Below are positions 30,077 to 34,540 of a stretch of DNA of 64,000 nt, in pieces (position 1 is the stretch's first letter; every line of letters begins with the position of its first letter). The DNA lies in contig NZ_FMBA01000011.1 in NCBI RefSeq assembly GCF_900094935.1, forward strand, positions 1 to 64,000, read 5' to 3'. Made by a program: the position numbers and the translations under genes. The notes under the pieces are model-generated. The model was not told where the DNA came from. It ran no database searches and saw only the letters and a list, made by a program, of their open reading frames with translations. This stretch comes from Gilliamella intestini (lineage in GTDB: Bacteria; Pseudomonadota; Gammaproteobacteria; Enterobacterales; Orbaceae).

Positions 30077-30510
30077 CGCAACCTCAATATAACATTTTTA
30101 TCAATAAAAAGATTATTATATACTTAAATCGATTGAATAAGTAAAGCGAATAAATGTAATCAATTCAAATACAAATTCATAGTTAATGGATTTTGCTTCT
30201 TGAAAGAAACAACTATTAATTATTTACCTGTATGGATAATAATGGTTAGTTGTTTGGTGTATTGATTGAATTTGGTATTGTGATTTCGGACGTTTTGGCT
30301 TTAAGTGATGAGAATAGCTACAAAGATCTTGTCCGAACCAAGAAAATTTGAAGTGAATTCGCTTGTTATTGGCACATTCTGGTGCCGAAAAAGACAAACA
30401 GCATAACCTAGGGGTGGATTTGTGAGAGAATTTTTTATTCAAGAAAGCTAATTACCTATCAAAAAATTCAGAAAAAGTAATAATTTTATTTATGTTTTTG
30501 TTCATCTTTT
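30077..30510. other. 434-nt gene-free stretch between ppnN and the accessory operon
   Basis: No convincing gene. A 72-codon frame on the minus strand (30224-30442) has no ribosome site, no recognisable motif and no family resemblance that could be seen. The segment 30240-30430 is richer in G and C than the A/T-rich flanks and looks like a fragment of something larger, possibly an old insertion. It marks the left edge of the 30.5-34.1 kb island. Confidence 0.5.
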
Positions 30511-31122
30511 TTAATCCTTAAATGTAATCACCTTATTCTTCTTAATACCTGTATCAAAACTTCCATCTGAGCTGTAATACGTTGCTCTTGCGTCAAGAAG
30601 CACTTCGTTATTGAGCGAGATTGTGTGATTATAGTACTGTTGTAATCGTTTGTCCTTTGCCCAGTTGGGGATGTTGGTGTAATGGTAGTTATAGTCGATC
30701 CACTTTCCGTTCTTGACGGTATAGACGTAGTTTATCTTGATATTGTACGTGTCATTGATTTTATCCACAATGATACTACCAAAGCAGAATGCCCCTTTGT
30801 TGTCGATAAAATACTGTTTACCTTCTTCGGTTAGTTTGTACCTTACTCCTTCGATTTCGATCGTGTTATTTTTGTCGATAAAGTTGGCTTTGATGTTGCT
30901 TGTTTCTAAGAATTTGAGTTCGACAAATAGGTCGAGTATTTCAGTTGGTTTATCGAAAAATATGTCCGCAGGCAAGAGGTTCTGCTTATTTGGCAAGAAA
31001 TAACACAGTGCTTGGTTGTCTTGTCTGCTTAAAGTATTCTGTAGCGATTTTTCATAATTTGTATTGTCGCAACCCAATAGCAATAAACTGAAAGTAGCGA
31101 TAAGTGGGTATTTTAAATTCAT
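30511..31122 (-). CDS. Predicted lipoprotein, paralogue of the next gene (family unknown)
   Basis: A 203-residue protein with a lipoprotein signal ending LLLLGC (Cys18), so probably lipid-anchored in the envelope; Asp follows the Cys, the inner-membrane retention residue in E. coli. Central and C-terminal features shared with the 31135 gene are an ALCYFL cysteine strand, a helical stretch (LDLFVELKFLE), YKLTEEGKQYF, and GAFCFGSIIVDKIND, where a second Cys recurs. A tyrosine-rich tail follows (WIDYNYHYTNIPNW). It is last of four coupled minus-strand genes, 12 nt after its paralogue. The function is unknown. Confidence 0.75.
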   Translation of the reverse strand: MNLKYPLIATFSLLLLGCDNTNYEKSLQNTLSRQDNQALCYFLPNKQNLLPADIFFDKPTEILDLFVELKFLETSNIKANFIDKNNTIEIEGVRYKLTEEGKQYFIDNKGAFCFGSIIVDKINDTYNIKINYVYTVKNGKWIDYNYHYTNIPNWAKDKRLQQYYNHTISLNNEVLLDARATYYSSDGSFDTGIKKNKVITFKD

Positions 31123-31134
31123 GATGATTAATTC

Positions 31135-31746
31135 CTACATATTAACAATTAAACCAATACCCCATTCACTGTAGAGCTGTTTTGTTTGCTCGTCGTAACT
31201 AAACCTTGCGGTATTGGTTTTTAATTGATTTTGTGGCTCTAATTTTGGCGGCAATTTATCAATAATATACTGATATTTAATTTCAACATAACTGTTATGC
31301 GGCGTTATTTGGGTTATCGATTTGACAATCACCTTGCCAAGGCAAAAACCTGACTGACTTATGTTAGGCCAGATTCTATGGTGTTTTTTCCCTTCTTCGG
31401 TAAGGTTATAGATATAAACATTTTTATCTTGGCTATTTTTGTAGATGTCAATTTGTTCCGTTAGCAAGCCCGCTTCTGTTAACCTTTGTAATAGCTTAAA
31501 TTCGTTACTGTTTTTGTATCGGTCAAATATGTAATAAGGCGGATTTGTTTTTAGTAGCAATATGCAATTTATCGGTTCACCATTGCCATTAATGGTATCA
31601 AAACGCTGTTGTATTTCGTTTTGCCATTGTTGTTCAGTTAAATTAAAAGTCACAGACTGTTTTTGTTGCGGCTTGATATCACATCCAGTGAGTGTAAGTG
31701 CGATTATTGTTGCCATAACACTAAGTGAATATTTTTTTATTTCCAT
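31135..31746 (-). CDS. Predicted lipoprotein, paralogue of the preceding gene (family unknown)
   Basis: Also 203 residues, with signal peptide ending LTLTGC (Cys22) and Asp after the Cys, so predicted to be anchored in the inner membrane. It shares with the 30511 gene the order NCILLL cysteine strand, FKLLQRLTEAGLLTEQ helix, YNLTEEGKKHH, GFCLGKVIVKSI, but overall identity is low, so the duplication is old or the proteins evolve fast. It begins 10 nt before the end of the 691-codon gene upstream, implying translational coupling. Not recognised as a characterised family. Confidence 0.75.
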   Translation of the reverse strand: MEIKKYSLSVMATIIALTLTGCDIKPQQKQSVTFNLTEQQWQNEIQQRFDTINGNGEPINCILLLKTNPPYYIFDRYKNSNEFKLLQRLTEAGLLTEQIDIYKNSQDKNVYIYNLTEEGKKHHRIWPNISQSGFCLGKVIVKSITQITPHNSYVEIKYQYIIDKLPPKLEPQNQLKTNTARFSYDEQTKQLYSEWGIGLIVNM

Positions 31747-33812
31747 AAGGTTTTGCCATCCTTTATCTGGTACATGTTTTCTTCGAAAGAGAATAACTGA
31801 TAGTAACCGTTTAATTTGGGCTGAAAGCGATCGATATTAAGTAAACTAGTTATTGGTAGTGGAAAACAAAATTCTTTATCTAAATAAGTAAATTGACTGG
31901 CAGATAATGCTGAGTCTTTTAGTGATAATTTACTACAAGGATAGCGCAAGTTGATATCGACTTTTTCAAAAACCTTAATATGATTAAGCCAATCAAACTC
32001 CATCGGTTTAAAATCGTTATAATCATCGTGATAGTCGTTTTTCATCACGATGATGTGGTCTTTGGCAAATTTTATATATTCGATAATTTGGCTTGTTCTA
32101 TTTGTAGTACTTGATGCTACATGATATCGATAACCGAATTTTAAACTCTGGTTTTCAAAATCAAATTCAGGGTCGATTAACCATTCAAATTTTAAATAGT
32201 CATTATATGCTTTGTAATTTTCTACCTCTGCAGCAATTTTTGTTTTTAATTTTTCGATTTTAGTCTTGTCGTCAAATAATTTATTGACTTCAAGTAAGTC
32301 AATAAATCCTACTTTATAAACATTTATGCATAATCGGTTTTTATTGTCATAAGCAGGCATAACAAACCTATCACAAAATGCTGCATTAGTTAACAGGTAT
32401 TGTTCACTATATATATACCCTTCAGGTATATTTAGTTCTGCAATATTTTCGATTTTAGTTGTAGTAGGCCCTGCAAGATAAATCTCACTCTGATTGAATG
32501 CAAAATGACTTGTATTTTTGTTTGATTGGATTTGTGTAAAATAACGGCTGATTTCAGGAATTTTATCTTGTGGTATTTTAATATCTTTGTTTTTTTTGTC
32601 TAGATAGCCATTTTTATCTGTTTTTGCCGATTCAATATAACGATCTAAAAGACATTCTCGCTCTAAGTCTGTTGGCCAAACTATTTTATTTTCCTTATTT
32701 TTTAATACTTTAAAATTACGGTTACAAAATTTGTATTGTGCCTGACCGACGATATCTTCATAAAATAAAATATTACCATTTATATCCAAAATCGTTAATA
32801 AATCTTTTTTATCCTCACTTTGATTTTTTTGTGTGGTTTTTTGGGCATAATAAAGTTTTTCCTTGCCAACATCTTTAACTGTATAATAATCATATTCACC
32901 AAGTGTTTTACCCTTAATATCAATAAGGTGATATTTTTTAGAATTATAATTATTTTTTACCCAACTTACTGTACCATATAAAGGAGAAATGCTATCAAAC
33001 TGATTTTCATAATGCATTTTCCCATCATAGTCATATAATTGATAAATACGATAACTATCTTGATAATTGCCTATCCAAAAATAACCAGCGGAAAGATTGT
33101 TTTTATAATCATTATCTCGATTAGTATCCCATGCATTAGATCCAACATCGGTTTCTTTGCCTGTTTTGCTATTAATTAAATATTGGCTATTATTTTTTTT
33201 ACATAGCTGCATGATTTTATCAGATGTGATTATTTTGCATTGTGAATTTAAATTTGTTTGGGATTGAGATTTTTGTATTTGCGCTTTTGGGGGAAGTTTT
33301 TTGAAAAATTCACCTTGTAGATTTAAATAACCAATCTCATCATTTTTAGTAGTAACTTTTGCATAACCATCAATGAACGGATTGATTTTTTTATAATAAA
33401 TTCCTTTTGGTGTAATTAAATTACCATCGGTATCAATGACAACTGATAAATCTGTATCTCCGTAATAATAGGCTATTCGTTCGGCGCCTAAATAAGTTAA
33501 GTTTTTTGGGATTTTAAATTTTAATATATCGCCTTTTTTTTCAAAAGAAAATTTAAAGTTATCTATATTATTTATATTACTGTAGTTATATTCATTGTAA
33601 TTAGTATGTAACTGCACAATCCAATAATGATCTTGGTATTTTATTGAGTCAATTTCTTGGCTGTTATCAATAATAACAGTGCCATCACGATCAAAGAGTA
33701 GATTGTTATAAGTAATATAGCGACTAGCATCATCAGAGAATGCTAAGATAGGGAATAAAATTAAGCTTAAATTTGTTAGATATCGGGCAGATTTTATTAT
33801 TTTATTATTCAT
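31737..33812 (-). CDS. Large exported protein of unknown function with WG-repeat-like segments
   Basis: A 691-residue protein with an N-terminal signal peptide (MNNKIIKSARYLTNLSLILF..., cleavage near FPILAFS) and no other membrane segment, so probably periplasmic or surface-exposed. Several stretches resemble WG/beta-propeller-like repeats of the form NPFIDGYAKVTTKNDEIGYL, NLQGEFF and LIDIKGKTLGEY, separated by 40-60 residues. The C-terminal third (from about 450) has several cysteines and no familiar pattern. It is unusually rich in Asn, Lys, Tyr and Ile. Its ATG overlaps the stop of the 33809 gene (ATGA) and its end overlaps the next lipoprotein gene. No function can be assigned. Confidence 0.72.
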   Translation of the reverse strand: MNNKIIKSARYLTNLSLILFPILAFSDDASRYITYNNLLFDRDGTVIIDNSQEIDSIKYQDHYWIVQLHTNYNEYNYSNINNIDNFKFSFEKKGDILKFKIPKNLTYLGAERIAYYYGDTDLSVVIDTDGNLITPKGIYYKKINPFIDGYAKVTTKNDEIGYLNLQGEFFKKLPPKAQIQKSQSQTNLNSQCKIITSDKIMQLCKKNNSQYLINSKTGKETDVGSNAWDTNRDNDYKNNLSAGYFWIGNYQDSYRIYQLYDYDGKMHYENQFDSISPLYGTVSWVKNNYNSKKYHLIDIKGKTLGEYDYYTVKDVGKEKLYYAQKTTQKNQSEDKKDLLTILDINGNILFYEDIVGQAQYKFCNRNFKVLKNKENKIVWPTDLERECLLDRYIESAKTDKNGYLDKKNKDIKIPQDKIPEISRYFTQIQSNKNTSHFAFNQSEIYLAGPTTTKIENIAELNIPEGYIYSEQYLLTNAAFCDRFVMPAYDNKNRLCINVYKVGFIDLLEVNKLFDDKTKIEKLKTKIAAEVENYKAYNDYLKFEWLIDPEFDFENQSLKFGYRYHVASSTTNRTSQIIEYIKFAKDHIIVMKNDYHDDYNDFKPMEFDWLNHIKVFEKVDINLRYPCSKLSLKDSALSASQFTYLDKEFCFPLPITSLLNIDRFQPKLNGYYQLFSFEENMYQIKDGKTLWK

Positions 33813-34108
33813 AATAATTGATTGTTATAAAATAGGATTGTTTTGCGATTAAATATAAGTCGGGTAAATAGATCCAAATGTCGATTAAGTTGATTATTTA
33901 CCCATACTTTTGTTAGAGATTGTTTAGGATAGGTTAATTGTTTAGTTTGATAAGGAAATAAGATATTTCCTAAATAAAAACAGATTTGGTTAACTTTATT
34001 TGGAATCTTTTGAATATAATATGTCTTTATGTTTTCCAATAATGTATTATCAATAGATTTTAGATTTGAATCTTCACAGCCTAATAAAAAAACAAATGCC
34101 TTTTTCAT
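33809..34108 (-). CDS. Short lipoprotein-like member of the same family, C-terminally truncated
   Basis: A 99-residue frame beginning MKKAFVFLLGCEDSN: a very short lipoprotein-like leader with Cys11. The segment ICFYLGNILFP and LDLFTRLIF line up with CYFLPNKQNLLP and LDLFVELKF of the 30511 lipoprotein, but the LTEEGK and FC-G half of the family is missing. Either a shortened paralogue or a gene broken when the 691-codon gene joined it. Its TGA overlaps the ATG of that gene, so it may now act mainly as a coupling leader. No strong ribosome site was seen. Confidence 0.55.
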   Translation of the reverse strand: MKKAFVFLLGCEDSNLKSIDNTLLENIKTYYIQKIPNKVNQICFYLGNILFPYQTKQLTYPKQSLTKVWVNNQLNRHLDLFTRLIFNRKTILFYNNQLL

Positions 34109-34540
34109 TCTTCATTATTGGTCAATTTATTGCAAAATCGATGTTATTTGTCATGGAGCTTTTATTATTAGTGTTTATTTAAAATTGACTCACTTTATAT
34201 AACTTATATTCCATTACATATATCTATTATGCCATAAATTTATACCTATTCCTCAGTTATTATATATTGATTAGTATCATAAAATAGTCAATCTAATTGA
34301 ACAAGATTAGCAGAAATTAACATAATGTAAATAAATTTCCTATAAATAAGTTTCTATTAATTGGAGAGGAGGCAGGTTATAAAAATCATTTTGCTCATAG
34401 TCAAAGAATAAAGCCTATGCTAGACTGAGCCAAACTCTGAAGCTTTTTTACCTAAGTGATATTTTCATATGGTGGATTAGCTGCGGTATAACGCAGAAAT
34501 GGTTATGCTTCCCGATTTGGATAAGGTGTTTAATGTATAT
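34109..34540. other. Gene-free region between the accessory operon and moaA
   Basis: About 430 nt, very A/T rich. It must hold promoters for both the minus-strand operon and moaA, but no strong consensus was found; TATGCT near 34417 is a possible -10 for moaA. A small hairpin, CTGCG-GTATAA-CGCAG (34481-34496), lies just before the first in-frame ATG of moaA. No riboswitch could be recognised with confidence. Confidence 0.5.

What the first reader, a model, noticed from the sequence alone, without database searches (positions are those of the whole stretch)
30511..34108. Four-gene coupled operon of unknown envelope proteins
Seen: four minus-strand frames joined by an ATGA overlap, a 10-nt overlap and a 12-nt gap. 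Three have a lipoprotein-type leader or lipobox, one a signal peptide. None was recognised as a characterised family. The composition is rich in Asn, Lys, Tyr and Ile, unlike the conserved genes on both sides. Inference: a horizontally acquired or fast-evolving envelope module, with the 691-residue protein as the main part and the lipoproteins as anchors or partners. This is the strongest candidate here for an undescribed system.
Basis: partly seen in the sequence, partly recalled or inferred. Interest (0 to 1): 0.72.

Follow-up and report, generated by a model that had tools for sequence, protein, structure and literature searches.

The report
Probable orphan T6SS-immunity islet in Gilliamella
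A bee-gut bacterium carries a small, swappable gene cassette whose two lipoproteins are distant relatives of proteins encoded in tandem right behind pore-forming type VI secretion toxins, so the cassette most likely protects the cell against neighbours' toxins that it does not itself make.

Summary
The four frames, overlaps, leaders and odd composition are real, but the parts are not equal. The 691-aa gene (31737-33812), B (31135-31746) and C (30511-31122) form a cassette that recurs in order in Gilliamella; the 99-aa gene is a truncated lipoprotein, seen otherwise only in G. bombi. 'No recognisable family' is wrong for the lipoproteins: an HMM built only from lipoproteins in tandem arrays 12-26 nt downstream of VasX-type T6SS effectors picks exactly C (2e-20), B (4e-17) and the 99-aa frame (1e-6) out of 415 window ORFs. 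The own genome has a T6SS but no VasX_N effector. The 691-aa protein has a predicted beta-propeller-like, WG-repeat-like first half and an unresolved second half. The cassette is a 4.25-kb block at a variable moaA-ppnN junction, empty in a close relative, and its genes are exchanged between species (C is 99.7% identical to a distant strain's). Best reading: an orphan T6SS-immunity islet, a known kind with unusual composition. Immunity is inferred, not shown; lone plasmid-borne relatives without T6SS context are the main counter-evidence, and the role of the 691-aa protein is open.

The parts
30511..31122 (-). Gene C: 203-aa lipoprotein (lipobox LLGC, Asp at +2), member of the T6SS-array lipoprotein superfamily; GC3 0.48, allele 99.7% identical to that of strain Choc5-1
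   Evidence: (HMM E 2e-20)
31135..31746 (-). Gene B: 203-aa lipoprotein (lipobox LTGC, Asp at +2), second, separate lineage of the same superfamily
   Evidence: (HMM E 4e-17)
31737..33812 (-). 691-aa exported protein, family found only in Gilliamella and one other Orbaceae genus in the genomes searched
32658..33725 (-). residues ~30-385 of the 691-aa protein: predicted beta-propeller-like, WG-repeat-like half
   Evidence: PF14903 E 0.019; pLDDT mostly 80-90
31740..32657 (-). residues ~386-691 of the 691-aa protein: conserved in sequence, structure not resolved (pLDDT under 60)
33857..34108 (-). family-matching part (first ~84 aa) of the 99-aa frame 33809-34108: truncated lipoprotein, probably a remnant; nearest full-length kin is a 516-aa protein elsewhere in this genome
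30140..34390 (.). variable block between moaA and ppnN; 88 nt in its place in close relative G004 (empty site)

Best explanation
The cassette is an orphan T6SS-immunity islet. Lipoproteins B and C are exported, lipidated and (by the Asp+2 rule of enterobacteria) probably kept at the periplasmic face of the inner membrane, where VasX/BTH_I2691-type effectors injected by neighbouring gut bacteria would insert to form pores; there each would bind and block one type of incoming effector. The 691-aa propeller protein, co-translated ahead of them, would act in the periplasm as a further immunity or binding protein. Shown: the homology, gene order, position away from effector loci, absence of VasX_N effectors in this genome, presence/absence polymorphism and interspecies exchange. 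Inferred: that the array lipoproteins are immunity proteins (position and tandem duplication only), that B and C kept that activity, their membrane, and the entire role of the 691-aa protein.
For: HMM from 37 array lipoproteins, with no cassette protein in it, hits only C, B and the 99-aa frame among 415 window ORFs, nothing in shuffled ORFs. Arrays begin 12-26 nt after a VasX_N/BTH_I2691-type effector gene (PF20249 E 1e-20 to 1e-23; NF041559 E ~1e-37, below its cut-off), with PAAR and DUF4123-like adaptor genes; one effector is followed by 11 tandem copies. 46 of 60 stand-alone relatives lie within 15 kb of a VasX_N gene, most others at contig ends; 0 of 29 cassette or fused members do. Own genome: T6SS sheath gene present, VasX_N absent; G020 has the cassette with neither. 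Empty site in close relative G004, cassette in 9 of 44 Orbaceae genomes. C gene dS 0.009 to a strain whose flanking ppnN has dS 0.93. Asp at +2 in 63 of 86 family members against 7 of 28 other lipobox proteins (copies are not independent). In related cassettes the next gene encodes a Sel1-repeat protein, a type that includes a tested T6SS immunity protein, Sel1E (PMC7108748). Orphan immunity genes are already reported to be common in Gilliamella for Rhs toxins (PMC8125069).
Against: B and C are on long branches and no effector-adjacent gene falls in their clades, so no cognate effector is known and function may have changed. Superfamily members also occur singly on about 700 enterobacterial plasmids with no T6SS gene beside them in the six neighbourhoods I read, so the fold is not exclusive to T6SS immunity. 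dN/dS of 0.2-0.3 shows constraint, not positive selection. No solved structure matches the lipoprotein model convincingly. No curated family names the array lipoproteins.
Confidence: 0.57

Rival explanations
1. Domesticated envelope module: the lipoprotein fold was recruited long ago together with the propeller (and Sel1) protein into an envelope complex that does something other than toxin immunity, for example outer-membrane assembly or surface binding.
For: Conserved three-gene order across species and one other genus, operon coupling, purifying selection; lone plasmid-borne relatives outside T6SS loci; propeller fold is shared with BamB among many others.
Against: Patchy presence (9 of 44 genomes), empty sites in close relatives, allele swapping between species, stripped or partial versions at the same junction (Sel1 gene without the cassette in G016) are unlike a structural module.
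Confidence: 0.22
2. Immunity islet against other contact toxins (bacteriocins, CDI, Rhs or non-VasX T6SS effectors), with mixed specificities for the different protein types.
For: Variable islet with unrelated secreted proteins side by side (691-aa propeller, lipoproteins, Sel1) resembles mixed islets such as SAIDI-1 of S. Typhi (PMC7400221); one Klebsiella plasmid relative lies within 10 kb of a cloacin immunity gene.
Against: The only effector type found next to relatives of B and C in Orbaceae is VasX_N.
Confidence: 0.15
3. Decaying leftovers of a former effector locus without present function.
For: The 99-aa frame is a truncated family member; no VasX_N effector in the genome.
Against: The other three frames are intact in six genomes with dN/dS mostly 0.2-0.3; C was recently replaced by an intact foreign allele; no effector remnant was seen in the block.
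Confidence: 0.06

Closest known systems
Putative immunity lipoprotein arrays behind VasX_N (PF20249/NF041559, BTH_I2691-type) T6SS effectors in Orbaceae (seen here; no curated family)
   Same: B, C and the 99-aa remnant match their HMM; B and C share the lipobox, invariant cysteines and the YxLTxxG...FCFG motif
   Different: No effector, adaptor or PAAR gene nearby; separate clades; co-transcribed with a 691-aa propeller-like protein
SAIDI-1 orphan T6SS/CDI immunity islet of Salmonella Typhi (PMC7400221)
   Same: Islet of orphan immunity-like genes recognised through relatives that sit behind effectors elsewhere
   Different: Smaller (3 genes), one lipoprotein superfamily represented twice plus an unrelated propeller protein; kinship to SAIDI-1 genes was not tested here
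[quoted passage not shown]
   Same: Orphan immunity genes that diverge from effector-linked ones
   Different: Different phylum; no recombinase beside the cassette; SUKH-domain immunity proteins there, exported lipoproteins here
WG-repeat proteins (PF14903)
   Same: N-terminal half of the 691-aa protein; paralogues score 30.2-30.7 bits against a cut-off of 25.6
   Different: Window copy scores 15.4, below the cut-off; the C-terminal ~300 residues do not match it
Sel1E, immunity protein to VgrG4 of Klebsiella pneumoniae (PMC7108748)
   Same: Sel1-repeat protein type found in the related cassettes and at the same junction
   Different: Not present in this window; kinship to Sel1E itself not tested

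Membership tests
Orphan T6SS immunity islet | Relatives lie directly downstream of T6SS effector genes | tested here: met
   for B, C and the 99-aa remnant; not for the 691-aa protein, which was never found beside an effector
Orphan T6SS immunity islet | Cognate effector absent from the genome | tested here: met
   no VasX_N match in G000; other effector types not searched
Orphan T6SS immunity islet | Accessory, horizontally exchanged locus | tested here: met
Orphan T6SS immunity islet | Protects against an effector | not testable with these tools
   needs a co-expression or competition assay
T6SS-array lipoprotein superfamily (defined here) | Lipobox, conserved Cys, LTxxG and FCFG motif, HMM match | tested here: met
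   B and C; the 99-aa frame only over its first ~84 residues
WG_beta_rep PF14903 | Score over Pfam's gathering cut-off | tested here: inconclusive
   window copy 15.4 of 25.6 bits; five paralogues 30.2-30.7 with neighbouring repeats
AID/rAID | Recombinase gene next to an immunity array | tested here: not met
   no such ORF recognised between 27000 and 38000
Known BTH_I2691/VasX immunity proteins (TsiV2, Tki5) | Sequence or fold kinship with those proteins | not tested
   their sequences were not fetched; effector kinship rests on PF20249/NF041559 only
Anti-phage defence (PADLOC models) | Match to a PADLOC model | tested here: not met
   no match at E 0.01

The most novel reading that the evidence does not exclude
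The 691-aa propeller, two inner-membrane lipoproteins and (in fuller versions) the Sel1 protein form one periplasmic complex that protects against pore-forming T6SS effectors in a broader, non-cognate way: a multi-subunit, transferable T6SS defence system rather than a row of one-to-one immunity genes.
Probability: 0.15. Interest if true: 0.75.

Novelty: new variant of a known kind. Interest (0 to 1): 0.47.

Why it matters
Gilliamella and its bee-gut neighbours fight with T6SSs, but published surveys of the group followed Rhs toxins; the two bee-gut T6SS papers I searched do not mention VasX effectors or lipoproteins. This finding points to a second, VasX-type front with its own uncurated immunity-like lipoprotein family, and to a chromosomal junction where such cassettes are swapped between species. 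It gives directly testable effector/immunity pairs in lab strains, and a link to similar lone lipoproteins on several hundred enterobacterial plasmids whose function is unknown.

Tried and rejected
Direct family searches: Pfam, NCBIfam and PADLOC gave only sub-threshold hits (PadR, WG_beta_rep, 'putative T6SS immunity periplasmic lipoprotein' E 0.077). PDB sequence search of both alignments: nothing convincing (PadR-type regulator E 0.07). Fold search of the 691-aa model: many propellers (eIF3b, BamB, WD40) at Z 5-7.7, in the range the tool calls common, so no function was read from it. Fold search of the C model: cystatin/affimer-like halves at Z 6-7, common arrangement only. Search for the 691-aa family in 395 order-level and 369 class-level genomes: outside Orbaceae only a 44-residue WG-like scrap. 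Plasmids: WG match in a Klebsiella integrative element, no T6SS context. Literature on WG-repeat immunity: nothing found. Anti-phage defence, phage origin and conjugation roles were considered and dropped for lack of any supporting gene.

Full report
What was checked. I call the genes, in order of transcription: A (99 aa, 33809-34108), the 691-aa gene (31737-33812), B (31135-31746) and C (30511-31122).

Conservation. The 691-aa gene, B and C recur together and in that order next to moaA in G. bombi, G. bombicola and strains Pas-s25, WF3-4 and Choc5-1. A second cassette with 46-50% identical 691-aa homologues, again followed by B-like and C-like genes and then by a Sel1-repeat gene (~855 aa) and a small membrane-protein gene, occurs in five genomes; a 36-38% identical version is in another Orbaceae genus, G038. 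The 691-aa family was found in 9 of 44 Orbaceae genomes and, in 395 order-level and 369 class-level genomes, nowhere outside Orbaceae except one 44-residue WG-like fragment. A has a counterpart only in G. bombi.

Kinship of the lipoproteins. B first matched, weakly, lipoproteins that stand in tandem arrays in other Orbaceae. Fetching these loci showed that the arrays follow genes of 1350-1560 aa with a VasX_N domain (PF20249, E 1e-20 to 1e-23; NF041559 BTH_I2691 family E ~1e-37, under its curated cut-off), preceded by DUF4123-like genes and often followed by PAAR genes. The gap from effector stop to first lipoprotein start is 12-26 nt in 11 cases. G015 has 11 tandem copies behind one effector. 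To test kinship without circularity I built an HMM from 37 array lipoproteins only and ran it on 415 stop-to-stop ORFs of the window: only C (2.1e-20), B (4.4e-17) and A (1.1e-6, first ~84 residues) matched; shuffled ORFs gave nothing. An alignment shows a shared lipobox, invariant cysteines and a YxLTxxG...FCFG motif. B and C are separate, well-supported lineages with long stems; no effector-adjacent gene lies inside either.

Orphan status. Of 89 relatives located in the order-level search within Orbaceae, 46 of 60 stand-alone ones lie within 15 kb of a VasX_N gene, and most of the remaining 14 are at contig ends or beside PAAR genes; none of 29 cassette-type or fused ones does. This genome has a T6SS sheath gene but no VasX_N match; G020 has the cassette with neither; G025 has it with a sheath gene and no VasX_N. 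The search for relatives scored at most seven candidates per genome, so counts are lower bounds. A fourth relative in this genome is a 516-aa protein on contig 15 whose first ~175 residues are the same domain; A is most like it.

The 691-aa protein. Pfam WG_beta_rep is sub-threshold for the window copy (15.4 bits) but passed by five paralogues. The AlphaFold2 model has a confident all-beta half (residues ~30-385, pLDDT mostly 80-90) and a poor second half; structure searches return many beta-propellers without a specific relative. I read this as a periplasmic propeller; its function is unknown and its place in an immunity islet is by association only.

Mobility. G004, with ppnN 98.7% identical in protein sequence, has 88 nt where the window has 30140-34390. 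Most of 20 other genomes have moaA and ppnN adjacent with a short or different insert; G016 has a Sel1 gene plus small gene there, and Pas-s25 has the whole series moaA, 691-B-C, 691'-B'-C', Sel1, small gene, two further unknown genes, ppnN. Alleles are mosaic: C is 99.7% identical in DNA to Choc5-1 (dS 0.009) although ppnN beside it has dS 0.93; the 691-aa gene is closest to G. bombi. C has GC3 0.48 here and 0.47 in Choc5-1 but 0.26-0.34 in the other alleles at this site. So the junction is a hot spot of exchange.

Mechanism. Members of the BTH_I2691/VasX family are T6SS-delivered pore-forming toxins proposed to insert from the periplasm, and Tke5 is neutralised by a dedicated immunity protein (PMC12909789). 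B, C and 63 of 86 family lipoproteins carry Asp at +2, the inner-membrane retention signal of E. coli (own knowledge), which is where such a toxin would be met. I therefore propose that B and C are orphan immunity lipoproteins. Steps shown: homology, location pattern, orphan status, exchange. Steps inferred: immunity activity, membrane, the 691-aa protein's part.

Limits. The family is wider than T6SS: single members lie on about 716 enterobacterial plasmids, and the six neighbourhoods I read show no T6SS genes (HMM E 1e-16 to 1e-22 for three tested). They may be plasmid-borne orphan immunity genes or something else; this is the main reason for keeping confidence near 0.57.

Precedents. Orphan immunity genes are reported as frequent in Gilliamella for Rhs toxins (PMC8125069), an islet of orphan immunity genes was proposed in S. 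Typhi (PMC7400221), and a Sel1 protein is a tested T6SS immunity protein (PMC7108748). The kind is known; the lipoprotein family, its VasX link in Orbaceae and the constant propeller partner are, to the extent of these searches, not described.

Noticed in passing
L157 6983-7633, L158 7001-7642, L159 6980-7621 and ~716 plasmid records: Single members of the same lipoprotein superfamily on Klebsiella, E. coli and other enterobacterial plasmids (IncX4, IncU, IncF), annotated 'hypothetical protein', no T6SS genes beside the ones read.
   Followed up: partly
L114 7078-8628 (own genome G000:C15), also G005, G014, G019, G020, G023, G025: 515-541 aa protein: T6SS-array lipoprotein domain fused to a ~340-aa C-terminal part with a weak RHS-repeat match.
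   Followed up: partly
L117 2869-15149 (G015:C1:544000-560000): 11 tandem copies of the putative immunity lipoprotein gene behind a single 1426-aa VasX-type effector, followed by a PAAR gene.
   Followed up: partly
moaA-ppnN junction in G003, G006, G007, G010, G020, G025, L006: A ~335-aa protein, mostly with a ~265-aa partner, occupies the same variable junction; neither has a Pfam match.
   Followed up: no
L154 2420-5425 and L151 798-3848: Sel1-repeat (~880 aa) plus ~106-aa membrane-protein gene pair at the moaA-ppnN junction, also without the 691-aa cassette.
   Followed up: partly
L156 7500-9885 (Klebsiella integrative element): WG-repeat protein matching residues 111-388 of the 691-aa protein at 26% identity, next to a DUF6708 gene, inside conjugative-element genes.
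   Followed up: no
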